Shown here: piece after piece, positions 317 to 17,549 of the stretch
Layout: every line of letters begins with the position of its first letter
How positions within the stretch are numbered: position 1 is the stretch's first letter
From: Planctomycetota bacterium
GTDB lineage: Bacteria; Planctomycetota; PUPC01; DSUN01
Direction of reading: 5' to 3'
Assembly (NCBI GenBank): GCA_016872875.1
Contig: VGYW01000157.1
Span: 1-17,549, forward strand
DNA length: 17,549 nucleotides
Position numbers and translations under genes: made by a program
Notes under the pieces: model-generated
Database searches by the model: none
The model's input: the letters and a program-made list of their open reading frames with translations, nothing else
Told to the model about the DNA's origin: nothing

Positions 317-367
317 GATCGGTCGGATCAGTCGGATCAGTCGGATCAGTCGGATCCGTCCGATCAA
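317..367. repeat. 9-bp tandem repeat with six GATC sites at exact 9-bp spacing
   Basis: Units of TCGGATCAG begin at 323, 332 and 341, followed by the variants TCGGATCCG (350) and TCCGATCAA (359). A further GATC lies just before the array. GATC tetramers start at 317, 326, 335, 344, 353 and 362, so they are phased at 9 bp throughout, even where the rest of the unit has drifted. The array lies between the pseudouridine synthase and FGE-like genes. Confidence 0.9.
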
Positions 368-1089: not shown

Positions 1090-1176
1090 TATGATGCGGT
1101 TGAGAGGGCCGCGTAAGCGCGGTCCGCTGGGGTATCCCCACTCGGCCGCACTTTTCTTTTCAGGCGAGGGCGATCC

Positions 1177-1923
1177 TTGTACCTCCTCTACCTCGACGAC
1201 TCCGGATCGGCCGCCAACAAGAACGAGAATTACCTGGTTCTCGGCGGCGTTCTCGTGTTCGAGAGGCAGGTCCACTGGATCTCGCAAGAGTTGGACAAGC
1301 TGGCCGCTGCGATCTGGCCTGCCAGCCCCGAGTGTGTCGAATTCCACGCTTCCGACGTCTTCTCCGGAAGACAGCCCCCTTGGAACGGCATACCTGACAA
1401 GGCCAAGCGACGTCAGGCCATCCGGGACGTTCTTGCAGTGCTCGCCCGCTCCCACAAGAGCACTTGCGCTTTTGCCTGCGCCGTTCACAAGGCGTCTTTC
1501 CCCGACGCCGACCCCATGGAACTCGCCTTCGAGCAACTGTGCAGCAGGTTCGATGTACATCTCAAGCGTCTGTACCACACGGAGGGTGAGCCACACCGTG
1601 GCCTGATCATACTTGACGAGAGTTCATACGAAACGAGTCTTCAGAAGCTGGCACGGGACTTCCGTTCTCTGGGCACCCGTTGGGATGTGGTCAGGAACCT
1701 GGTCGAGGTGCCGCTCTTCGTAGACTCGCGCGCCTCGCGGCTGCTTCAATTGGCTGATCACGTTGCCTACGCCGTGTTCCGACGCTACGAGGCGGGTGAT
1801 ACTTCCTACCTTGACCCTATACTCTCAAGATTCGTTGCGGAAGAGGGCAAGCTCCACGGTCTCGTGCATCGCCAGACAGTGGACATGACCTGCATGTGCC
1901 CCGCTTGTATGGGCCGCAGATAG
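1177..1923 (+). CDS. DUF3800 family protein (predicted RNase H-like fold), copy 1
   Basis: The 248-residue protein opens with YLLYLDDSG, the DUF3800 signature strand with paired acidic residues D7/D8. Later come VEFHASDVF and, near the C-terminus, DSRASRLLQLADHVAYAVFRR, the conserved 'S-x-x-x-Q-x-A-D' helix. DUF3800 has been proposed to adopt an RNase H-like fold with clustered acidic residues. It is frequent in mobile and defence-associated loci, but its biochemistry is largely unknown. The start is TTG at 1177, preceded by GGCGAGGG; it is the only start that gives the family N-terminus. The C-terminus carries CMCPACMGRR, a possible small metal-binding or redox Cys cluster. It is one of the few plus-strand genes here. 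A second, divergent DUF3800 member lies at 9924-10718. Confidence 0.85.
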   Translation: MYLLYLDDSGSAANKNENYLVLGGVLVFERQVHWISQELDKLAAAIWPASPECVEFHASDVFSGRQPPWNGIPDKAKRRQAIRDVLAVLARSHKSTCAFACAVHKASFPDADPMELAFEQLCSRFDVHLKRLYHTEGEPHRGLIILDESSYETSLQKLARDFRSLGTRWDVVRNLVEVPLFVDSRASRLLQLADHVAYAVFRRYEAGDTSYLDPILSRFVAEEGKLHGLVHRQTVDMTCMCPACMGRR

Positions 1924-2517: not shown

Positions 2518-2569
2518 AGTGTTTCCCTCTCTCTGTACAACACCCCACAGACAGGGGAACAAAACCGCA

Positions 2570-2772
2570 GTCCCGAAGGGACAGCAGTTGATAGCCGGCG
2601 GCTTCAGCCGCCGGATCGGGGCGCGCACACAGGCCAGTCCCGAAGGGACGGCAGACGCCCACGGCAGACGGCCCGGCGCACGGCGCTGCCGTCCCTTCGG
2701 GACTTCTCTACTTCTGGCGCGCGAGTCCGGCGGCTGAAGCCGCCGGCTACCCACTGTGCTCCCTTCGGGAGC
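2570..2772. repeat. composite REP-like palindrome cluster
   Basis: The roughly 300 bases between the GH43 relic and the URO-D gene hold no gene. They hold nested palindromes: GTCCCGAAGGGAC at 2570-2582 and 2637-2649, its reverse complement at 2691-2703, and a variant, GCTCCCTTCGGGAGC, at 2758-2772. CCGGCGGC(TTCA)GCCGCCGG lies at 2595-2614, with its reverse complement at 2727-2746. The arms 2636-2654 and 2686-2704 form a perfect 19-bp inverted repeat, so the whole block is roughly symmetrical. The layout resembles REP/BIME elements. No RAYT transposase gene is present in the window. Confidence 0.85.
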
Positions 2773-8612: not shown

Positions 8613-9620
8613 TCACTTCTGCGTTGGCTCCCTCCGCAGCGCGGCGCCGAGCTGGCGGAGGGCGGTGGCCTCGTCGGGGTGGATGTCGCCGTAGGGGCGG
8701 GGGCCGACGTTGAGCATGAAGGTGGCGCCGCGGCGATTGGCTTCGCGGAGCTTCGGCAGGATGTCGGCGCTGCCCTTCACGGCGTGGCTGCGGGGGGCGT
8801 AGGCCCAGCCGCTGTTGAGGTTCCACCAGACCGCCTTCGGCTTGTCGCCGACCTCGGTGGTGTTGAAGCCCACCGTGTTCTCGCCCGGCATGTCCAGCTC
8901 CCACACCTGGTAGTCCTCGCCGGGCAGCGGCAGGACGTGGGTGTTGTTGACCACCACGGCGTCGGGCTGGAGGGAGTGGATGAGGTCGTAGGTGCCCGCG
9001 AGGTGCCACGGGCCGCGGGGCGGGAAGTAGAGCTGTTCGTCGGGCGTGTCGAACTCTGCGCGGGGCCAGTAGCCGTCGAAGAGGATGCCGCCGATCTTGC
9101 CGAAGCGGGTGCAGAGCTCGCGGACGTGGCCCTGGTAGTAGGCGACGTAGGCCGGCCAGTCGGCGCGGTAGGCGGGATGCGTCCAGTCGAGGATCGAATA
9201 ATAGAAGTGGAGTGCGATGCCGCGGTCGCGGAGGGCCGTGGCCAGTTCCGCCAGCACGTCGCGCTTGAACGGCGTGCTCGTGATCTTCCAATCGGTCGAG
9301 GGGGTGTCCCACAGGCAGAAGCCGTCGTGGTGCTTGGAGGTGATGAGGAGGAACTTCTGGCCGGCTTCCAGCATCAGGTCCGCCCACTCCTCGGCGCAGA
9401 AGCGGACGGGGTTGAACTGCCCGAGCCGCTCGCGGTAAGTGGCGAGCGGGATGCGCTCGACGTAGTAGACCCATTCGCCACGTCCGTTGAGCGAGTAAAG
9501 GCCCCAGTGGACCGACAGGCCGAACCGCGCGTCCACGAACGCCTTGACCCCCTCGGGCGTGGCCTGGAGCCTTGCCGCGCTCGTGTCCTCCACCTGGTAG
9601 CCGCTCGCCACCGTCCTCAT
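8613..9620 (-). CDS. alpha-L-fucosidase, glycoside hydrolase family 29, compact cytoplasmic form
   Basis: The 335-residue protein is a GH29 (beta/alpha)8-barrel. It has FGLSVHWGLYSLNGRGEW (33-50), ITSKHHDGFCLWDT (93-106), GGILFDGYW (177-185) with D182 as the expected catalytic nucleophile, and the late TFMLNVGPRPYGDIHPDE. It should release alpha-L-fucose from oligosaccharides by a retaining mechanism. It stops soon after the barrel and lacks the C-terminal beta-sandwich of many ~450-residue members. The start is ATG 9620, with AAGGGGAAGAG before it. A longer reading frame to 9722 runs through a repeat and is not real coding. No signal peptide, so it likely acts on imported oligosaccharides. 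Confidence 0.93.
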   Translation of the reverse strand: MRTVASGYQVEDTSAARLQATPEGVKAFVDARFGLSVHWGLYSLNGRGEWVYYVERIPLATYRERLGQFNPVRFCAEEWADLMLEAGQKFLLITSKHHDGFCLWDTPSTDWKITSTPFKRDVLAELATALRDRGIALHFYYSILDWTHPAYRADWPAYVAYYQGHVRELCTRFGKIGGILFDGYWPRAEFDTPDEQLYFPPRGPWHLAGTYDLIHSLQPDAVVVNNTHVLPLPGEDYQVWELDMPGENTVGFNTTEVGDKPKAVWWNLNSGWAYAPRSHAVKGSADILPKLREANRRGATFMLNVGPRPYGDIHPDEATALRQLGAALRREPTQK

Positions 9621-9663
9621 CTCTTCCCCTTTCTTCTCAAGGCGGCTTGTGGCCGCAACTAAA

Positions 9664-9738
9664 GAGGATGATTGGATGGGTGGATGAATGGATGATTGTC
9701 TGAAGTTCATCCACCCATCCATTCATCCATTCATCCTC
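9664..9738. repeat. imperfect 32-bp inverted repeat built from GGATGAAT-type units
   Basis: The left arm (9664-9695) and right arm (9707-9738) pair at about 27 of 32 positions across an 11-base loop. Each arm consists of tandem ATGGATGA/TCATCCAT units. It lies in the ~300-base gap between the fucosidase start (9620) and the DUF3800 stop (9924). Otherwise that gap holds only the dam C-terminal fragment, its hairpin, and about 75 bases in which I recognise nothing. Confidence 0.75.
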
Positions 9739-9746
9739 GCCGACAC

Positions 9747-9761
9747 GCGCGCAAGGCGCGC
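9747..9761 (-). terminator. hairpin after the dam 3' fragment
   Basis: GCGCGC (9747-9752) and GCGCGC (9756-9761) form a 6-bp stem with a 3-base loop, about 12 bases beyond the stop of the dam C-terminal fragment. It may be the old terminator of the resident gene, but there is no U-tract. Confidence 0.35.
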
Positions 9762-9773
9762 ACGAGTCAGGGT

Positions 9774-9845
9774 TTAGTAGTTCAGGACGATGAGCTCCTC
9801 GATCTTCCCGCGGCCGCCGCCCCTGGAGTTGATCGCCCCGCGGCG
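9774..9845 (-). pseudogene. C-terminal fragment of a D12-class (Dam-like) DNA methyltransferase
   Basis: The last 23 codons before a TAA at 9774 read RRGAINSRGGGRGKIEELIVLNY. This is the Dam-family C-terminus. The intact gene nearby ends RAIGSRADSRKLVEEVVVMNY, and E. coli Dam has ISSNGGTRKKVDELLALY. An in-frame stop lies just upstream (TAA near 9867), and no start or motif precedes it. It is on the same strand as the N-terminal dam fragment at 11837-12259, so the two appear to be ends of one gene, now separated by the DUF3800-dam cassette. Confidence 0.7.
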
Positions 9846-9923
9846 AGGAGTAGTCCATACTGGCAGTTATCCCAGAACTGGCGGAAGAACGAGTTGCCAC
9901 CAGAGACCTCCCCGGGCGAACCT

Positions 9924-10718
9924 TCAATCGCTGCTCGCCAAGTCCTGCGGCTTGACGTAGGGGACCTCGCGGTGCAGCCGAACCTCTCGTGTTCTCGGCC
10001 TCGCCCTGAACTCCTCCGGTGGGAAGTGCCAGATATTGAAGTGCGAGTTGGGCATCGTGTCGTACCAAAGCGCATCCCACCCCAGCATCATGGCAAGCCG
10101 GTTGACAAGAAGGCGCTTGCCTCGCCGCAGCATCGACGAGCCTGCCAGGTACTCGCGGTGGCTGGCGGTGATCGCCCCTGTGAGTACGTCGGCGATCTGA
10201 ATGCCGGCCACAAGTTTTGAGTCGGACTTGGTGACGTGCGTGATCTTGGAGCGGGCGCCGATCCTTGCAAGCATGTAGTTCGTGATCTTCTCCATGACCT
10301 CGTCATGCTTCTCGTACCGGTCCGTGCGACGGTCGATGTACACTTCGAACTCACCCTGTCGCCTCTTCGCCAAGTCGTTCATAAGCAACGTGTAGGTCTT
10401 GTAGAATGCCTCCTCCCTGTCGGCACCTGGGGAACTCCAGAGGCGGTAGTGACCCTTGTGAACGACGATGGTGCCAAAGGTCAGATTGGTCTGCTGGATG
10501 ATGCCCATCCAATCAAGGACAAAGTTGATGGACCCATGGCTTGACCCGATGTCATTCCACTTCAGCTCGTGAGCAACACCGTGTTGGCCGCGGAGCTTGT
10601 CGAACGCGTCCACGAAGGCGTCCTGGACCACTGATGGGACAACGAGCGCCCCAATGCCATAGCAGGGGCTGTCAGGTGATGTGGCGCTTTCGTCGGCGAA
10701 CACGAGAAGCTTGGACAT
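9924..10718 (-). CDS. DUF3800 family protein, copy 2, paired divergently with a dam-like gene
   Basis: The 264-residue protein starts at ATG 10718 (MSKLLVFADESATSPDSPCYGIGALVV), with GGGAGG upstream. D9/E10/S11 is the DUF3800 'D-E-S' strand. It has HELKWNDI, FEVYIDRRTDRYEKHDEV and SKLVAGIQIADVLTGAI, the conserved 'Q-x-A-D' helix. A predicted RNase H-like fold with acidic residues makes nuclease activity possible but unproven. It shares only family motifs with copy 1 at 1177, so it is not a recent duplicate. It is divergent from the intact dam-like gene, with 178 bases between the start codons. Both genes lie inside the broken resident dam, suggesting that they arrived together. Confidence 0.85.
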   Translation of the reverse strand: MSKLLVFADESATSPDSPCYGIGALVVPSVVQDAFVDAFDKLRGQHGVAHELKWNDIGSSHGSINFVLDWMGIIQQTNLTFGTIVVHKGHYRLWSSPGADREEAFYKTYTLLMNDLAKRRQGEFEVYIDRRTDRYEKHDEVMEKITNYMLARIGARSKITHVTKSDSKLVAGIQIADVLTGAITASHREYLAGSSMLRRGKRLLVNRLAMMLGWDALWYDTMPNSHFNIWHFPPEEFRARPRTREVRLHREVPYVKPQDLASSD

Positions 10719-10840
10719 GACCGCACCATCCTCCCAATGTGGTCCCGCAGTCATTGGCAGGCGTCGCTAATCTCCTACCATTTACCCTTCAGATGATAGC
10801 GCCAAAGGGCCGTTGGATCAAGAACCCGCGTGATCCGTGC

Positions 10841-10869
10841 TTGACGCCATCGTGGCGGTTACGTAGAAT
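10841..10869 (+). promoter_or_regulatory. sigma70-type promoter of the intact dam-like gene
   Basis: TTGACG (10841-10846) and TAGAAT (10864-10869) are 17 bases apart, each matching consensus at 5/6. AAGGAGG at 10881-10887 then gives a near-perfect ribosome-binding site 9 bases before the ATG at 10897. Confidence 0.75.
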
Positions 10870-10896
10870 GCCGTCACCGCAAGGAGGATCCCAGAT

Positions 10897-11790
10897 ATGG
10901 CCCCGGCCGCGAGAGTCCCGACCGGGCTCTTGTTGGACATGGCGATGGCGACACCGTTCCTCAAGTGGGCAGGCGGCAAGGGCCGCGTCTTGCACCAGCT
11001 TGAGCCATTCCTGCCGCAGGCGTTCAACCGCTACATTGAGCCGTTCGTTGGCGGCGGAGCATTCTTCTTCCACTTGAGCACAGCCGGTAGGCTTGCCTCT
11101 GGCGCCATCCTCAACGACCTAAACCGGGAGTTGATGAACTGCTACAGGGTGCTTCAAGACCCCGCGAGTGTCCCGGACCTCATCTCGCTGCTCCGTCGGT
11201 ATGCCCACTACACCCAGGATCCAGGTTTCTACTACAGACTCCGAGCCTTGGATCGCTCTCCGGACTTCATGGCGAAGCACACTAAGGTCCAGCGCGCGGC
11301 GAGGACCATCTTCCTCAACCGTACATGCTACAACGGCCTCTATCGGATAAACGGCAAAGGGTGGTTCAACGTCCCATACGCTCAGTGCTCACGTGCGAGG
11401 AGACTATTCCGCCAAGACAACCTATGGGCATGTCATCGCGCGCTTCAAGGCGTCGAGCTCACAGAGGGGAGTTTTGAGAAGTGCCTGTGCCGCGCTCGCC
11501 CCGCGGACTTCGTCTACCTTGATCCGCCCTACGACCCCCCAAGCAACACTTCTTTCTTCACGTCGTACAACGGCAGCAAGTTTGGTGAAGACGACCACAA
11601 ACGCCTGTCCGACGACTTCCGCGCCCTGCACCGTGCAGGGTGCCTCTTGATGCTCAGCAATTCCGCCACTCCCTTTGTGCGAAGCCTCTACCAAGGGTTC
11701 CGGATTCAGCAGGTTCTTGCCTTCCGGGCCATCGGCAGTAGGGCTGACAGCAGGAAGCTTGTTGAGGAAGTGGTGGTCATGAACTACTGA
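10897..11790 (+). CDS. dam: D12-class adenine-specific DNA methyltransferase (Dam-like), intact
   Basis: This 297-residue N6-adenine methyltransferase has all family motifs. FLKWAGGKG (21-29) and EPFVGGGAFF (48-57) form the S-adenosylmethionine site. FLNRTCYNGLYRINGKGWFNVPY (139-161) is the Dam-type loop. YLDPPYDPP (207-215) contains the catalytic DPPY (209-212), and VEEVVVMNY closes the protein. Dam-type members usually modify GATC; the specificity here is not proven. There is no restriction endonuclease of a recognised type beside it, only the divergent DUF3800 gene. A strong promoter and ribosome-binding site are present. It is about 60% identical by eye to the broken dam N-terminal fragment that converges on it from the right, over the alignable ~125 residues. 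Confidence 0.92.
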   Translation: MAPAARVPTGLLLDMAMATPFLKWAGGKGRVLHQLEPFLPQAFNRYIEPFVGGGAFFFHLSTAGRLASGAILNDLNRELMNCYRVLQDPASVPDLISLLRRYAHYTQDPGFYYRLRALDRSPDFMAKHTKVQRAARTIFLNRTCYNGLYRINGKGWFNVPYAQCSRARRLFRQDNLWACHRALQGVELTEGSFEKCLCRARPADFVYLDPPYDPPSNTSFFTSYNGSKFGEDDHKRLSDDFRALHRAGCLLMLSNSATPFVRSLYQGFRIQQVLAFRAIGSRADSRKLVEEVVVMNY

Positions 11791-11818
11791 CGGGTTCTCG
11801 GGCCGTTCTCTGCTCTGG

Positions 11819-11841
11819 CCTGCCCACCTCCTGGGGGCAGG
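11819..11841 (+). terminator. hairpin after the intact dam-like gene
   Basis: CCTGCCC (11819-11825) pairs with GGGCAGG (11835-11841) across a 9-base loop, about 30 bases after the stop codon at 11790. There is no strong U-tract, so it is a weak terminator call. It also coincides with the right-hand junction of the cassette. Confidence 0.4.
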
Positions 11842-12259
11842 TGTGGTTCAGGAAGATCGCCCGTGCCGCCCGCTCCGCGGGGCTGAATCGCTGGACGAAG
11901 GCGGGATCGCGGTCCCACGCCCGAACGCTATAGTAGTGCTCTGCGCTGAGCCGGTGCCGGGCGTGCGTCCGCAGCAGCCGAAGAAGCTCAGGAACGCTCT
12001 CGGCGTCCTGAAGGACGCGGTAGCAGTTGATCAGCTCGGGATTGACATCGCTGAGCGTGGCGCCGTGCTCGATGCGGCCCAAGTTGCGGAGGCGGAAGAA
12101 GAGCGCGCCGCCGCCGAGGAACGGCTCGACGTAGCGGCGGAAGCTGGCCGGCAGGAGGGGTTCGAGCTGGGCGAGGAGTTGCCCCTTGCCCCCCGCCCAC
12201 TTGAGGAACGGGGTGGCCTGCGCGGTCAGTCCGGGAATCAGGCCGCCCACATGCGCCAT
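11837..12259 (-). pseudogene. N-terminal fragment of a resident Dam-like methyltransferase
   Basis: From ATG 12259, preceded by GAGGAGG, the frame gives ATPFLKWAGGKG (15-26), VEPFLGGGALFF (44-55) and RAARAIFLNHTC (130-141). It then leaves homology abruptly where full-length relatives continue YNGLYRIN. The remaining 19 codons (PQEVGRPEQRTAREPVSSS) are read through the cassette junction into the 3' end of the intact gene, to 11777. The DPPY catalytic motif is missing, so the product cannot methylate DNA. The protein's proper C-terminus is found 2 kb away at 9774-9845, in the same orientation. About 110-130 middle codons are lost. Confidence 0.8.
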
Positions 12260-12293
12260 CGCGCCTCCTCTTCGCTCTGCCCGCCACCGCCCT

Positions 12294-12490
12294 CATAGTG
12301 TGTCAAACATCAGTGGCGCAGTTGACACACTATGGGAAAAACGGCCCCGGATGCGTCCGGATCGCCAAGATGCCCGTAGTGTGTCAGGTTTGGGGTTGAC
12401 ACAGTATGGCGGGACCGCCCCGGAAGCGTCCGGATCGCCAAGACGCCCATAGTGGGCCAAACACCAGGGGCGCGGGGTTGGCACAGTATG
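12294..12490. repeat. threefold hairpin repeat with conserved linkers
   Basis: Three copies of an inverted repeat CATAGTGTGTCAA ... TTGACACACTATG lie at 12294-12334, 12375-12408 and 12448-12490. They are joined by two near-identical ~40-base linkers sharing GCGTCCGGATCGCCAAGA. Copy 1 is a perfect 13-bp stem. In copy 3 a T to C change in the left arm is matched by A to G in the right arm, so pairing is kept. It occupies the gap between the transglutaminase-like gene and the broken dam. The linkers are conserved, which excludes a CRISPR array. Confidence 0.85.
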
Positions 12491-13252: not shown

Positions 13253-13498
13253 CTACGCGAGGACCGGCTCCTTCGCATTCTGCACGGTGATCACCGGATC
13301 GGGGTTCTCTGGGGGCACAGGAAGGCCATGTTCCTTCAGCAAGGCCACGTGCTCCCTCATTCCCCACTTGGCCTTATACAGGCAGTCCTCGACGGATTGC
13401 CCGATGCCCGTGAACCCCTCAAGGTCGGGGGAATAGAAGCCGAAGAAGTCGGGCTCCTCCGTGGCCTCGATCACCAAAGAGTAAGGCAGTTCAATCAT
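13253..13498 (-). CDS. hicB: HicB-family antitoxin-like protein
   Basis: The 81-residue protein has the HicB partial RNase H-like fold: SLVIEATEEPDFFGFYSPDLEGFTGIGQSVEDCLYKAKWGMREHVALLKEHGLPVPPEN. The 'PDL-G-F-x-x-G-x-S-x-E-x-x' and 'H-x-x-x-L-x-E-x-G-x-P-x-P-P' blocks are typical. HicB normally neutralises the HicA mRNA interferase encoded just upstream. Here only a hicA 3' remnant precedes it, so the antitoxin is orphaned. The ATG at 13498 has GAGGAGGAG about 10 bases upstream. It lacks a C-terminal DNA-binding extension. Confidence 0.85.
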   Translation of the reverse strand: MIELPYSLVIEATEEPDFFGFYSPDLEGFTGIGQSVEDCLYKAKWGMREHVALLKEHGLPVPPENPDPVITVQNAKEPVLA

Positions 13499-13513
13499 GG
13501 CTATGGCTCCTCC

Positions 13514-13585
13514 TCACTTGAGCCCTGCGGCCTTGAGGATGCTCTGGCACGTTCCCGTCGGCACTCCCTTGGCGGCAGAGGGATC
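13514..13585 (-). pseudogene. probable hicA toxin 3' remnant
   Basis: Just before hicB, the minus strand encodes DPSAAKGVPTGTCQSILKAAGLK and stop. The GTxxSILKxAGL ending matches the last helix of HicA toxins. The upstream part, with the catalytic His, is not recognisable; the sequence there is the end of the 273-residue gene. The evidence is short, about 16 informative residues. Confidence 0.5.
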
Positions 13586-14405
13586 ACTGAGGGTTTTCTC
13601 CCCCGCCCTCCTTGGGGGCTTCTCCGGTTCCAGTGGCGCGCATCGAGAAGCCCCATCGTGGGGGCACCCCCTTGACATCCTCCAAGGGGGTGCCGTCCTC
13701 GGAGCGCCTGTTCATCGCGGCCCCTCCGAGCCCCCAACCCAGATGGACCTTCATCTGGCTGATGCTCAGAGTCTCCAGCGAGTAGGCGGGCCATTCGACA
13801 AGAACCTGGACGTAGCCGACAAATGGGATCTCTTTCGCCAGGTAGTCGGGGTGGCACCTCTCGATCCAGCCGAAGAACCGGCTGAGGTCCCAGCTCTTGT
13901 CCTTGGCCGCCCACTCCTGCGACAGCTTCCGCCAACCATCTCGAGCCGCTTCGGGGATGGTGTAAGACAACTCGTAGTCACCACGCCTCTTGGCGTCCGC
14001 GGCGCTCTCGGGCAGGGGGATCCAAGTGGACCAGTGAACCTTGTCCACGCCGTAGCGGAAGTAGGGCCGCAGCCTATCCGTGTCGCGGCCCTGGCGGCCC
14101 TTCTCCAGCGTGTATCGCCGGTCAACCGAGAGCGAGACGCTCACGCCATTGGGAATGGTCCAGGCGAAGCCGATTGGGATGGGATGACTCTGCACCCATG
14201 TGCCGGGGACCGGCGGTCGGCCCTGATAGACCAATCCGCCGTCCGCGAGCCCCATGTGTTTCGAGAACGTGACCTCGGAGGGGAGAGCATCCTTCCTGAA
14301 CTCAATCGTGATGTTCGCGCCGTCAATGATGGGTGCCCATGCTGTGTTCGGCACCAAGGCCAGGCACAGAATGCCTCCAAGGACAAACCGTCTGCCGCTT
14401 TTCAT
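13586..14405 (-). CDS. secreted hypothetical protein
   Basis: The 273-residue protein begins at ATG 14405, with GAGGAGG 7 bases upstream. It has a clear signal peptide (MKSGRRFVLGGILCLALVPNTAWA, cleavage near 24). The mature part is beta-rich (IIDGANITIEFRKDALP, SVSLSVDRRYTLEKG) with a Trp-rich C-terminal half (WRKLSQEWAAKDKSWDLSR, FFGWIERCHPDYL). I recognise no family. The last ~40 residues (RRSEDGTPLEDVKGVPPRWG ... GGGENPQ) are encoded by a run of hairpin-forming GC repeats, so the original C-terminus may have been shorter. The stop codon TGA lies at 13584-13586. It follows the MazF-like gene by 22 bases and could be co-transcribed with it. Confidence 0.6.
13590..13694. repeat. hairpin cluster at the 3' end of the secreted hypothetical gene
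   Basis: GGCACCCCCTT (13663-13673) pairs perfectly with AAGGGGGTGCC (13684-13694). Weaker stems such as GCCCC-ATCGT-GGGGC lie next to it. The GGTGCC/GGCACC core resembles the element inside the GH116 gene at 15899-15982. Confidence 0.6.
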
Positions 14406-14427
14406 TGGTCGCCTCCTCGCTCCCCGT

Positions 14428-14757
14428 TCATAGCCCCAGGGATTGGCGGATCCGTTCCTCGACCCCAGCCAGGTCGGCGTCGCTGAGGCGGCCCGGCCTG
14501 TAGCGCACGAGGCGTGCGCTCAGCGTGGCGAGCTTGGCGCGGACCCAGGATGAGGCCAGCAGATTGGCCGCTCGCCAGTCCTTCAGTTCATAGTCAAAGG
14601 GTGTATCGTGCCGGACCGATGTGATCATGGCAACGGTGAGGTCGCCCGTCGCCGCCTCGAAGTCACCCACGCTCAATACGACCGCGGGGCGTGTCTTGAT
14701 GCTGCTGAGGTCTGTGAAGGGGAATGGGATGAGGACGACGTCACCTCTCTGGAACAC
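14428..14757 (-). CDS. MazF/PemK-like endoribonuclease toxin
   Basis: The 109-residue protein from GTG 14757 reads VFQRGDVVLIPFPFTD, TRPAVVLSVGDFEA and VAMITSV. These are the conserved strands of the MazF/PemK/CcdB-like barrel, with the RGDV and PFPF loop and the RPAVVLS strand that carry RNA-cleavage residues. The C-terminus (WRAANLLASSWVRAKLATL) resembles PemK-type toxins of cyanobacteria and similar bacteria. The GTG lies inside the antitoxin's last codons, giving a 17-base overlap typical of TA operons. A longer frame to 14916 is a shadow of the antitoxin. It should cleave mRNA when free of its antitoxin. Confidence 0.85.
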   Translation of the reverse strand: MFQRGDVVLIPFPFTDLSSIKTRPAVVLSVGDFEAATGDLTVAMITSVRHDTPFDYELKDWRAANLLASSWVRAKLATLSARLVRYRPGRLSDADLAGVEERIRQSLGL

Positions 14758-14965
14758 CGTAGCGCTCCCTCCAGTTGTCGTAGGCGGCGTCCTGGTCATT
14801 GTCCCAGTCCTCGGCGAAGCTGGCGGCGGAGAGGTGATCCCAGTCGCGGTCCCTCTCGGCGTCGCCGGCGGGGGGAGTATGCCGGCCCCGGAGCAACTGG
14901 ACGAAGCCCTTGACAAGGTTGACCTCGGCCTCGGTCAGGTCGTCAACGTCTATGGCGGCAGACAT
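14741..14965 (-). CDS. antitoxin of the MazF-like pair
   Basis: The 74-residue protein from ATG 14965 has GAAGGAGG upstream. It opens with MSAAIDVDDLTEAEVNLVKGFVQLLRGR, a Leu-rich helix. Its acidic, Trp/Tyr-containing tail reads FAEDWDNDQDAAYDNWRERYGVPER. A short helical N-terminus with an acidic 'W-D-N-x-x-D-A-x-Y-D' tail is usual for antitoxins paired with this type of MazF. It overlaps the toxin start by 17 bases, and its own start overlaps the last 23 bases of the GH116 gene, so translation may be coupled to GH116. Confidence 0.75.
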   Translation of the reverse strand: MSAAIDVDDLTEAEVNLVKGFVQLLRGRHTPPAGDAERDRDWDHLSAASFAEDWDNDQDAAYDNWRERYGVPER

Positions 14966-17549
14966 GTTCGTCCTCCTTCGCGACAGACTTCTCATCCGCT
15001 TCAACAAGTATAGCAGTGCCCCGCGAGGGTTTCAACCTGATGGCCGCGGAGCCGAAGCCGGTGAGGGTCAGGGTGCGGAGGTCGAGGGAGCCGTGGAGGA
15101 CGGCGAGGCGGACCTCGATGCCACGGCGGGTGGGCCGCTGGCGGACCGTGCCCCAGGCGGAGCCTGTTGACCAGAACCAGGTGGTGGGCTTGGAGGCGGC
15201 GGCGAAGGTCATGGTCTTGGTGACGGCGGAGTAGTGGAAGCCGGTGAGGGCGAGGAGGGCTGACCAGGAGGCCATCGCGCGGGCGTAGTGGTGGCCGCAC
15301 TCGGCTTCGTCGAAGGGGTTGCGCCGCTGGCCGTCGTAGCGGCGGCGGATGGCCTCGATGCACTCCAGGCCAGCCGCGGTCTGGCCCTCGTAGAGCATGC
15401 CGACTGCCGCGCAGTACTCGAAGCCGGTCATGACTTCGTTGTAGTAGGGGAATGGGCGGTTGGGGCGGCGGCCGCGGGGGTAGGTGGCCATGAGGAGGGC
15501 CGATTCGTCGTTGAGGGCGAAGGTTCGCAGATGGTTGAAGTGGCCGTAGAGGCCACGCTTGAAGTTGTGCCGCATGATGGCGCGGTGGGTGGCCCTGACG
15601 TGCTCGGGGTCGAGGAGGTAGCCGAGGCCGAGGACGTGGGCGGTGTATTGGCCGACGAGTTGGTCCACGAGGCAGCCTGCGCCGAGCTGGAGGTCTGGCT
15701 CGGAGAGGTCCTTTGCGCCCATGCTGAGGCGGAGGCCGGCGGCGATGGCGTCAGGCGAGGCCGGCGGGCGAATCTCGTGCTCGTAGTACTCGCCGTTGAA
15801 GAGGCGCTCGTCCATCCAACGGCTGCCGCGCTCGAAGATGGCGCGGCACGTGTCGGCGAACGCGGTGAGTTCCGTCGCTTCGGGCGACTGACCCTGGTGG
15901 GTGGCACCCTCAAGTCCGCTTGAGGGTGTGTTCCCGGGCTCGCGCCGGTTCGCACCCTCAAACAAGTTTGAGGGTGCCACCCCCTCAGAAGGCTGAAGCG
16001 GAGCCGTCCTGGCAAGGTGGCGGGCCATTTCCTCGACGGCGCGGAGTGCGCCGAGATACCAGGCGCCCATCTGGGGGTTCGGGCCGTAGTACTCGACGTC
16101 CATCGTGTTGTGCTGGCAGCCCTCCATCACGCCGTCGCGATCGGCGTCCCAGCCGCCGGGCGCCCAGCAGAACTCGATGGCCTTGCGGATGCGGGGCCAG
16201 AGGCGGCGGAGCCAGGCGTCGTCGCCGCAGAGCTGCCAGTCGCGGTAGACCTTCATCAGGCAGCCCAGTTGGCCGTCGGCCGCGGCGTGCTTGAAATCCT
16301 GCGCTTTGGCGAGGGGCAGGTTGACGCGGAAGGACATCAGCCCGGCGTCGTCGGTGGCGAGGAGGAACTCGGTCTCGCGCATCGAGCGGGCGAGGGCTGG
16401 AAAGAGGAAGGCGGTGGCGTGCTCGTAGTTCCAGACGTGGGTGCAGGAGCCGTGGCAGCAGCCGGCCTTGTCGCCGCAGCCCTCCCAGCCGAAGAAGCGG
16501 CCGTCCTCGGTGCGGAAGCAGGTTTGGGAGCGCAGGGTCGAGAGGTTGAAGAGCGCGGCCTGCTTGACGGCGGCCGGCAGGTCGCTCTGGCAGAAGGCTT
16601 GGACGAATGCGAGCGTGTCGGCCTCGAGGCCGGGGAGCGCAGCGGCGGCCTTCGACGCGGCGTCCCAGGCGTCCGCGTATTGCGTCGTGTAGTAGTTGCC
16701 GATGCGGTTCGCCTCGCAACAGGCATCCTTCGCAGGGGTCCAGGTCATGCGGTTGGGGAAGTGCCAGGCGAGGATGAAGGTGACGGCTCGCTCGGCGCGG
16801 GCCGGGATGCGAAGGCGGACCGCGAGGGAGGCCTGAGGGGAGTCCACGCCGCCGCTGTCACGCTCATCTAGCCGGCCGTCGGCGGAGAAGTCGTCCCAGA
16901 AATCAAGGAGCGAGTCGCCCCAGCTCAGGTTGGCCCAAGCGGTGCGGTGGGAGACAAGGGACCTAAGGGACCCAAGGGACCTAAGGGACCCACCGGTAAG
17001 AACGGCCATGGCCATTGTGCCCCATTGTTCGGTCTTGGGGTCAACGCCTTCCGAGGTCATGAAGATGCCCTGAAGCCTGCCCTCCTTGCGGAAGGTGTTG
17101 ACGTTCTTGAGCGGCTTGCCGCTGGAGCCGTCGGAGCCGATGAAGTTCTGGAGGGAGCCGCAGACGGCGGCGTCAACGGGCTGCTTCGTGCGGTTTGTGA
17201 GGACGAAGCGGAGGACGGCGATGGGCAGGCCGCTGCGGTCGGCGTCGCCGGGGATGAGGGGGTTGAACGCCTCGATGCGGACGTCGAGCGGCACGTCGGG
17301 GTCGGCGAGGAGCACCTGGCCGAAGGGATAGGCGGCATGGAAGGAGCAGTGGCGGAAGCGTGGGAGGCCGTGGTTGGGGGCGGTGGCGCCGGCTGCGCCC
17401 TCGTAGGTCTCGGGTGGGAGGAGGCCCTCGAGGCAGAGCGTGATGCGTGATGCGTGATGCGTGAGAAGAGAAGAAGACGTGATGCGTGATGCGTGATGCG
17501 TGAGAAGAGAAGAAGACGTGCCGCGTGCCGCGTGATGCGTGAGAGGAGA
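14943..17549 (-). CDS. GH116-family glycoside hydrolase (glucosylceramidase/DUF608 type), 5' end missing
   Basis: The frame stays open to the right edge (868 codons plus stop), so the start is outside. The visible N-terminal domain reads LEGLLPPETYEG, PRFRHCSFHAAYPFGQVLLAD, PDVPLDVRIEAFNPLIPGD. The (alpha/alpha)6 catalytic domain has CTHVWNYEHATAFLFP, with the Glu (codon near 16424) as the likely nucleophile, and CQHNTMDVEYYGPNPQMG, with the Asp (near 16100) as the likely acid/base by comparison with GH116 enzymes. It ends with DEAECGHHYARAMASW. It should hydrolyse beta-glycosides such as beta-glucosides. Three repeat-derived insertions are carried in frame (17440-17549, 16956-16991, 15899-15982). 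No ATG is needed at 17315; the conserved frame extends upstream of it. Confidence 0.88.
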   Translation of the reverse strand, partial: SPLTHHAARGTSSSLLTHHASRITSSSLLTHHASRITLCLEGLLPPETYEGAAGATAPNHGLPRFRHCSFHAAYPFGQVLLADPDVPLDVRIEAFNPLIPGDADRSGLPIAVLRFVLTNRTKQPVDAAVCGSLQNFIGSDGSSGKPLKNVNTFRKEGRLQGIFMTSEGVDPKTEQWGTMAMAVLTGGSLRSLGSLRSLVSHRTAWANLSWGDSLLDFWDDFSADGRLDERDSGGVDSPQASLAVRLRIPARAERAVTFILAWHFPNRMTWTPAKDACCEANRIGNYYTTQYADAWDAASKAAAALPGLEADTLAFVQAFCQSDLPAAVKQAALFNLSTLRSQTCFRTEDGRFFGWEGCGDKAGCCHGSCTHVWNYEHATAFLFPALARSMRETEFLLATDDAGLMSFRVNLPLAKAQDFKHAAADGQLGCLMKVYRDWQLCGDDAWLRRLWPRIRKAIEFCWAPGGWDADRDGVMEGCQHNTMDVEYYGPNPQMGAWYLGALRAVEEMARHLARTAPLQPSEGVAPSNLFEGANRREPGNTPSSGLEGATHQGQSPEATELTAFADTCRAIFERGSRWMDERLFNGEYYEHEIRPPASPDAIAAGLRLSMGAKDLSEPDLQLGAGCLVDQLVGQYTAHVLGLGYLLDPEHVRATHRAIMRHNFKRGLYGHFNHLRTFALNDESALLMATYPRGRRPNRPFPYYNEVMTGFEYCAAVGMLYEGQTAAGLECIEAIRRRYDGQRRNPFDEAECGHHYARAMASWSALLALTGFHYSAVTKTMTFAAASKPTTWFWSTGSAWGTVRQRPTRRGIEVRLAVLHGSLDLRTLTLTGFGSAAIRLKPSRGTAILVEADEKSVAKEDEHVCRHRR
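15899..15982. repeat. 84-bp double-hairpin palindromic element inside the GH116 gene
   Basis: Perfect 15-bp outer arms, GGGTGGCACCCTCAA (15899-15913) and its complement (15968-15982), enclose two perfect hairpins: 10 bp at 15905-15928 and 12 bp at 15952-15977. Length 84 is a multiple of three, so the reading frame is kept and about 28 residues are added to a surface-type linker. Confidence 0.9.
16956..16991. repeat. 9-bp tandem repeat inside the GH116 gene
   Basis: Four units of AAGGGACCT/AAGGGACCC run in tandem. On the coding strand they give SLRSLGSLRSLV within an otherwise conserved domain. The 9-bp period keeps the frame. Confidence 0.85.
17440..17549. repeat. 39-bp tandem repeat made of GTGATGC heptamers, inside the GH116 gene
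   Basis: Each unit is three heptamers (GTGATGC or GTGCCGC) plus an 18-base GTGAGAAGAGAAGAAGAC tail. Units start at 17440, 17479 and 17518; the third is cut by the window edge. Thirty-nine bases equal 13 codons, and the frame stays open, giving repeated LTHHASRITSSSL. Confidence 0.9.

What the first reader, a model, noticed from the sequence alone, without database searches (positions are those of the whole stretch)
9774..12259. A DUF3800-dam cassette sits inside, and has destroyed, a resident dam gene
The N-terminal 141 codons of a Dam-like gene (11837-12259, minus) end abruptly at NHTC. The expected C-terminus, GRGKIEELIVLNY and stop, is at 9774-9845, on the same strand. Between them are a DUF3800 gene and a complete dam-like gene in the opposite orientation. 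The simplest reading is that a ~2-kb module carrying its own methyltransferase entered the resident dam, with loss of its middle. The module thereby replaced the function it destroyed. This would make the pair addictive: loss of the cassette would leave the cell without this methylation.
Basis: partly seen in the sequence, partly recalled or inferred. Interest (0 to 1): 0.75.

Follow-up and report, generated by a model that had tools for sequence, protein, structure and literature searches.

The report
Nuclease–methylase cassette that replaced dam
A two-gene unit, a predicted nuclease plus its own DNA-marking enzyme, sits inside the broken remains of a bacterium's original copy of that enzyme; the same two genes probably travel together elsewhere, so this looks like a self-sufficient variant of the known 'dam-replacing' insertions.

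Summary
On the minus strand, 11837-12259 is the gapless N-terminus of a Dam methylase, ending at NHTC. 9774-9836 is a Dam C-terminus (profile E 2.6e-13; best in 435 kb of other DNA 9.7 bits). Of 120 listed dams, P0134 is best for both pieces. About 133 codons, with the catalytic motif, are missing. In their place lie a DUF3800 gene (minus) and a complete dam (plus), with lower G+C and flank-unlike codon use.

The DUF3800 protein has a confidently predicted RNase HII-like fold. The pair is probably a real unit: 3 of the 9 DUF3800s nearest to the window's share a longest-contig length with a listed dam, against 0 of 110 others; those contigs could not be read. I read it as a mobile nuclease-methylase cassette that displaced an orphan dam, comparable to drg ('dam-replacing gene') of Neisseria, but bringing its own Dam.

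Not shown: empty site, insertion mechanism, nuclease activity, joint function, addiction. No close relative of the site was reachable; no target duplication was found.

The parts
11837..12259 (-). Resident dam, N-terminal 141 codons (catalytic motif region and the rest of the C-terminal half missing); the open frame runs on to 11777 into cassette-side DNA
   Evidence: Pfam MethyltransfD12 E=7.1e-19, profile 1-117/253; gapless 132-residue alignment to P0134, 72%; GC 0.690, codon fit to flank genes 0.402
9774..9836 (-). Resident dam, C-terminal 20 codons and stop (AINSRGGGRGKIEELIVLNY*)
   Evidence: C-terminal profile of 180 dams, E=2.6e-13, 44.3 bits; null best 9.7 bits; best single relative P0134, 17/20
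9846..11836 (.). Cassette (approximate limits; true edges lie within 9837-9923 and 11791-11836)
   Evidence: Lies between the two resident pieces; its genes are 59% G+C, the resident N fragment 69%
9924..10718 (-). DUF3800 gene of the cassette, 264 aa, predicted RNase HII-fold nuclease (PADLOC candidate family PDC-M04A)
10719..10938 (.). Divergent intergenic region: promoter-like TTGACG-17-TAGAAT (+, 10841-10869) towards dam and TTGATC-17-TATCAT (-, 10821-10793) towards DUF3800; GATC at 10816 (inside the DUF3800 -35 hexamer), 10832 and 10887 (just before ATG 10897)
   Evidence: consensus matches only. If dam starts at ATG 10897, part of this is coding
10939..11790 (+). Complete cassette dam, 283 aa (or 297 aa from ATG 10897, which by eye has a better Shine-Dalgarno-like sequence)
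   Evidence: Pfam MethyltransfD12 E=8.7e-52, profile 1-253/253; NCBIfam TIGR00571 244.5 bits, cut-off 114.85; nearest solved structure 2dpm, DpnII methylase 1, E=4.6e-61

Best explanation
A horizontally acquired two-gene cassette, an RNase HII-fold nuclease (DUF3800) divergently paired with its own Dam-type adenine methylase, entered the chromosomal orphan dam gene. The middle of the resident gene was lost, and its N- and C-terminal stubs remain on either side. I infer that the pair works like a restriction-modification unit: the cassette Dam marks the host DNA (probably at GATC) in place of the lost enzyme, and the nuclease acts on nucleic acid that lacks the mark or is produced by invaders. 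Because the cassette supplies the methylation that it removed, its entry would be tolerated and its loss costly. Shown: the split resident gene, the full-length cassette genes, their different composition, the predicted fold of the nuclease, and very probably the recurrence of the pair. Inferred: a single event, the GATC target, the substrate of the nuclease, functional coupling, addiction.
For: Both stubs are Dam, in the right order and strand, and best match the same relative. Codon fit to flank genes: cassette DUF3800 0.130, cassette dam 0.036; resident N piece 0.402, C piece 0.645 (20 codons only); 6 of 8 flank genes 0.443-0.572, the other two 0.104 and 0.296. Pair recurrence: 3 of the 9 DUF3800s nearest to the window's have the same longest-contig length as a listed dam (5497, 52403, 3615; with the window's own 17549, 4 of 10); offset control 0.09 for the 10; 0 of the other 110, control mean 1.3 (lengths). 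The 52403 match was found by searching with the dam of the 3615 contig; sources and contig number agree too (P0007 and P0241: jgi, lgn, ena; 3 contigs each). P0007/P0008 and P0241/P0198 are sister pairs in their own trees. Nuclease: RNase HII fold. DUF3800 is called an RNase H-fold nuclease of some class 2 CRISPR loci (PMC10910872, PMC12669027, passages). Precedent: drg inserted in dam (PMC516771 passages; PMC4269198 section 22).
Against: No target duplication; the longest word shared between the boundary regions is 9 bases, inverted, within chance. 0 of 27 loci with more distant DUF3800s (L001-L027; 24 of them from genome contigs, mostly gammaproteobacteria, 36-46% identical) have a Dam within the fetched flanks of 0-12 kb, so the pairing is confined to one subclade. 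6 of the 9 nearest DUF3800s show no usable dam partner in the lists. 0 of 80 viral dam loci carry this DUF3800 within 6 kb. The linked dams do not form a clade in the free tree. PMC10910872 speaks of a catalytic rearrangement in the DUF3800 fold it modelled. RNase HII-type enzymes act on RNA-containing duplexes, unlike ordinary restriction nucleases (recalled). GATC is only mildly depleted in the window; five other 4-base palindromes are more so.
Confidence: 0.55

Rival explanations
1. The resident dam was already decaying or deleted in the middle, and the cassette later landed in, or was exchanged into, a dead gene. The cassette did not kill it.
For: 133 codons are missing and no clean insertion site is seen. 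The nearest relative of the resident, P0134, is the only one of 182 listed dams without DPPY (it reads NHPY), so this dam lineage may lose function on its own.
Against: 132 residues of the N-terminal piece align to P0134 without gap, frameshift or stop, and its codon use is still close to the flanks (0.402), so little time passed between loss of function and the present.
Confidence: 0.25
2. Two neighbours without a joint function: the DUF3800 nuclease is a defence gene of its own (perhaps RNA-directed), and the dam beside it is an ordinary orphan methylase carried along.
For: More distant DUF3800 relatives have no dam nearby: 0 of 27 loci. DUF3800 occurs as an accessory RNase H-fold nuclease of class 2 CRISPR loci and is linked to structured RNAs. 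The second DUF3800 of this window has a DUF3800-VI RNA in front of it and no dam beside it.
Against: Same-length contig with a dam for 3 of the 9 nearest DUF3800s, far above the control; matching sister pairs in both trees. No Rfam DUF3800 RNA in 9700-12300.
Confidence: 0.27
3. The cassette dam is a duplicate of the resident that recombined with it in inverted orientation.
For: The two dams are in opposite orientation and 139 bases near their starts are 73% complementary.
Against: They are about 59% identical as proteins (76 of 129) and lie apart in the tree, the resident with P0134 (87/90) and the cassette dam on a long branch of its own. G+C and codon use differ. It does not explain DUF3800.
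Confidence: 0.03
4. Assembly chimera: unrelated contigs joined.
For: No whole genome is held for the window, which may be a metagenome record; composition changes at the borders.
Against: It would need two false joins, both inside the same dam gene, with the two ends in the right order and strand. The DUF3800 cluster is listed on 3 contigs, although the cassette dam on only 1.
Confidence: 0.03

Closest known systems
drg, the 'dam-replacing gene' of Neisseria (NmeBII/Drg, DpnI-like)
   Same: A nuclease gene of lower G+C inserted in the dam locus; in some strains dam is left truncated (PMC4269198 section 22 and passages; PMC516771 passages).
   Different: drg cuts methylated GATC, and dam+/drg- and dam-/drg+ are mutually exclusive (PMC516771). 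Here the inserted unit carries a complete Dam, and the nuclease is DUF3800 with an RNase HII-like fold.
DpnII-type GATC restriction-modification systems
   Same: D12-class adenine methylase beside a nuclease gene; the cassette dam's nearest solved structure is DpnII methylase 1.
   Different: The neighbouring nuclease is DUF3800 with an RNase HII-like fold, not a DpnII endonuclease. Divergent rather than co-directional genes (the DpnII gene order is recalled).
DUF3800 / PADLOC candidate PDC-M04A
   Same: The cassette nuclease matches PDC-M04A at E=2.7e-26; DUF3800 is reported as an RNase H-fold nuclease (PMC10910872, PMC12669027, passages).
   Different: The partner in those passages is Cas12a2 or another class 2 CRISPR locus, not Dam. 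What PADLOC expects beside PDC-M04A I could not learn (0 papers).
Mobile restriction-modification units (minimal mobile elements; RM insertion with long target duplication)
   Same: A small nuclease-methylase cassette in a chromosomal site; no transposase gene recognised in it.
   Different: No target duplication; the target is itself a methylase gene and its central part is lost. The term minimal mobile element is taken from PMC4269198 section 22; long target duplication papers were seen only as a search listing.

Membership tests
Dam family (TIGR00571 / PF02086), cassette gene | Full-length match above the curated cut-off | tested here: met
   TIGR00571 244.5 bits vs 114.85; PF02086 176.8 bits vs 22
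Dam family (TIGR00571 / PF02086), cassette gene | DPPY catalytic motif | tested here: met
   YLDPPYDP in the alignment; all but P0134 of 182 listed dams have DPPY
Dam family (TIGR00571 / PF02086), cassette gene | GATC specificity | not testable with these tools
   Inferred from similarity to DpnII methylase 1 and E. coli Dam
Resident dam as a functional Dam | Catalytic motif region present | tested here: not met
   Residues equivalent to P0134 142-274 are absent
DUF3800 (PF12686), RNase HII-like nuclease | Family match above cut-off | tested here: met
   47.7 bits vs 21
DUF3800 (PF12686), RNase HII-like nuclease | RNase H/HII fold with acidic active-site residues | tested here: met
Type II restriction-modification system | Methylase and nuclease genes side by side, recurring together | tested here: inconclusive
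   Side by side here; recurrence from contig lengths only, 3 of 9 other close DUF3800s
Type II restriction-modification system | Nuclease recognises the sequence that the methylase protects | not testable with these tools
   Needs biochemistry
drg-type dam replacement | Nuclease gene of deviant G+C inside a truncated dam | tested here: met
   definition from PMC4269198
drg-type dam replacement | DpnI/Drg-like nuclease, cell without Dam | tested here: not met
   The nuclease is DUF3800 and the insert carries a complete dam; so not a drg member, only comparable to it
RM insertion with long target duplication | Direct repeat of target sequence at both borders | tested here: not met
   Longest shared word 9 bases, inverted, within chance

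The most novel reading that the evidence does not exclude
A new class of restriction-modification-like element: an RNase HII-fold DUF3800 nuclease whose self-protection is a Dam methylase, spread among uncultured bacteria. It installs itself in the host's orphan dam gene and hands the host a substitute Dam, so that a housekeeping epigenetic mark comes under the control of a selfish cassette. Its divergent promoters, with GATC sites in one -35 hexamer and at the start region of dam, would be set by its own methylation.
Probability: 0.25. Interest if true: 0.75.

Novelty: new variant of a known kind. Interest (0 to 1): 0.5.

Why it matters
If right, it shows a route by which a selfish nuclease-methylase unit can take over an orphan regulatory methylase without the cell losing the mark. 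That bears on how orphan Dam and restriction methylases interconvert. It would also give DUF3800, an RNase H-fold family without a settled function, a partner and a testable role.

Tried and rejected
No genome is held for the window. The best relative of the resident among the listed dams is 72% identical (P0134, on an 8,044-base contig that I could not fetch). The single genome-contig scan went to DUF3800 and returned 24 loci, mostly gammaproteobacteria. 299 genomes of the phylum of G002 held DUF3800 (E<=0.001) in 12. 399 relatives of G001 held a dam (E<=1e-30) in 137, best 55% identical to P0134. The 13 loci kept showed no dam within up to 1.5 kb of DUF3800, nor did L028 and L029; the 10 dam loci showed no DUF3800.

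Viral or plasmid origin: no DUF3800 relative in viral contigs with the single protein, 1 locus with an alignment; 0 of 80 viral dam loci carry this DUF3800. Plasmid and phage records give only distant hits: DUF3800 in 7 and 9 records, best 41%; dam best 45%.

Target duplication or microhomology: none beyond chance. GATC depletion as a sign of GATC restriction: z -3.2, but CTAG, CCGG, GTAC, GCGC and CATG are more depleted, so rejected. RNA element in the cassette: no Rfam family above threshold; no unusual folding of the intergenic region (z -0.32). Hairpin after the cassette dam: z -0.06. PD-Lambda-5 as the parent system: the cassette dam matches PD-Lambda-5_B only weakly (E 4.6e-12, against 7.9e-82 for a type II methylase model). 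One clade of the four linked dams: not rejected (p-AU 0.246), not supported. They rank 1, 2, 3 and 10 of 38 in root-to-tip length, suggestive, but two of them share a stem.

Rows dropped and mended: only contigs over 1,650 bases were counted, so that both genes fit; two equal lengths below that (1065: P0006/P0192; 1142: P0025/P0220) were left out as too short. Only the longest contig of each cluster and at most 120 proteins per search were visible. In one search two genes (fucosidase, C-terminal fragment) were taken in a wrong frame, which also touched the pooled codon table; one search repeats the composition work in the right frames and its numbers are the ones used. The GATC part does not depend on frames.

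Literature: no paper found on DUF3800 with Dam. (DUF3800 + methyltransferase): 6 papers, 5 listed, none on this topic by title. (DUF3800): 11 papers, 10 listed. (PDC-M04): 0. (minimal mobile element + two terms): 0.
Full report
WHAT IS THERE. The two pieces are real. The minus-strand ORF from 12259 matches the first 117 of 253 positions of the Pfam D12 methyltransferase profile (E 7.1e-19). It aligns without a gap to P0134 over 132 residues up to NHTC at 11837. The C-terminal piece, AINSRGGGRGKIEELIVLNY and stop, is at 9836-9774. Pfam gives no match to so short a tail, so I built a profile of the last 21 columns from 180 dams. It finds the piece at E 2.6e-13 and 44.3 bits, more than the tail of the intact dam in this window (24.9), while 435,001 bases of other loci give at most 9.7 bits. 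Of 120 listed dams, P0134 is the best relative of both pieces (95/132 and 17/20). Taking P0134 as a ruler, 133 codons (142-274) are missing, with the catalytic motif among them.

THE CASSETTE. Between the pieces lie a DUF3800 gene (10718-9924, minus) and a complete dam (10939-11790, plus; an earlier ATG at 10897 is possible). Both genes are 59% G+C, against 69% for the resident N fragment. Their synonymous codon fit to the flank genes is 0.130 and 0.036, against 0.402 for the resident N piece, 0.645 for the 20-codon C piece and 0.443-0.572 for 6 of 8 flank genes. The other two flank genes (0.104 and 0.296) and the second DUF3800 (0.004) are low too, so low fit is not unique to the cassette. 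The borders lie within 9837-9923 and 11791-11836. The left gap is 57% G+C, the right gap 72%. No target duplication or microhomology beyond chance was found.

THE METHYLASE. The cassette dam is a full Dam-family member (TIGR00571 244.5 bits, cut-off 114.85) with DPPY. Its nearest solved structure is DpnII methylase 1 (E 4.6e-61). It is about 59% identical to the resident fragment (76 of 129). In a tree of 61 rows the resident groups with P0134 (87/90) and the cassette dam stands on a long branch elsewhere, so it is not a recent duplicate.

IS THE PAIR A UNIT? The contigs themselves could not be read, so I compared longest-contig lengths in the protein listings. Of the 9 DUF3800s nearest to the window's, 3 have the same length as a listed dam: 5497, 52403 and 3615 (with the window's own 17549, 4 of 10). 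Offsetting lengths by 1-100 bases either way gives 0.09 on average for the 10. Of the other 110 listed DUF3800s 0 match (1.3 by the same control). The 52403 match came out when I searched with the dam of the 3615 contig: P0241 is 78% identical to it, as P0007 is 83% identical to P0008, and P0007 and P0241 agree in sources and contig number. The other 6 of 9 show no usable partner. Farther out, 27 loci with DUF3800s of lower identity have no dam in the fetched flanks, and 80 viral dam loci have no such DUF3800. So the pairing belongs to one subclade. One clade of the four linked dams is neither supported nor rejected (p-AU 0.246).

REGULATION (weak). The scan found 4 promoter-like sites in 9600-12400, 0.6 expected. 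Two face the two genes. GATC sites lie in the -35 hexamer for DUF3800 (10816), just upstream of the dam -35 (10832) and just before ATG 10897 (10887). Control of a restriction system by methylation of its own site is known (CfrBI; seen only as a reference title in PMC3874152). I offer it as a guess.

HOW IT WORKS. The simplest account: a nuclease-methylase cassette entered the orphan dam, deleted its middle and supplied a substitute Dam. The intact reading frame of the resident stub argues that this is recent. That the nuclease acts on unmarked nucleic acid, and hence that loss of the cassette would be costly, is inference. P0134, the nearest relative of the resident, reads NHPY where 181 of 182 listed dams read DPPY, so loss of this dam may happen without a cassette too.

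KNOWN AND NEW. Neisseria drg is the clear precedent: a low-G+C nuclease gene inserted in dam, in some strains leaving it truncated (PMC4269198 passages and section 22; PMC516771 passages). There the nuclease cuts methylated GATC and Dam is absent; here a different nuclease comes with its own Dam. I therefore call this a new variant of a known kind and not a member of the drg family. Origin: one of the listed dams nearest to the cassette dam is named Candidatus Brocadiia bacterium (P0144, 59%); the taxon of the window itself is not established.

Recounting changed the gapless alignment from 133 to 132 residues, the contig count to 3 of 9 others, the neighbour count to 27 loci, and the codon figures.

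Noticed in passing
window 1097-1148 (+) and 1177-1923 (+): A second, different DUF3800 gene (Pfam E 2.2e-16) lies 28 bases behind a strong DUF3800-VI RNA (59.9 bits, gathering 35). Its low codon fit (0.004) suggests that it is also acquired.
   Followed up: partly
window 2569-2614 (-), weaker at 2727-2772 (+): Acido-Lenti-1 RNA (50.1 bits, gathering 37); a second, sub-threshold copy (24.6 bits) in the opposite orientation about 110 bases further on.
   Followed up: no
P0134 (dam on an 8,044-base contig): The closest listed relative of the broken resident dam has NHPY in place of DPPY, the only one of 182 listed dams without it; possibly an independent loss of activity, or a sequencing error.
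   Followed up: partly
window 12294-12490: Upstream of the resident dam: direct repeats of 46 and 17 bases at 73-82-base spacing, and a perfect 13-base inverted repeat CATAGTGTGTCAA / TTGACACACTATG.
   Followed up: no
window 9665-9737: Inverted repeats made of GGATG-like units between the dam C-terminus and the fucosidase gene; miRNA family matches there are far below threshold.
   Followed up: no
window 13253-15007 (-): Toxin-antitoxin-like genes: a PemK/MazF-like toxin (14428-14916, E 1.4e-13) with a small ORF upstream (14741-15007, no Pfam family), and a weak HicB-like antitoxin (13253-13498, E 0.0021, below cut-off).
   Followed up: no
window 317-365: Short tandem repeat with a GATC every 9 bases, six times.
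   Followed up: no
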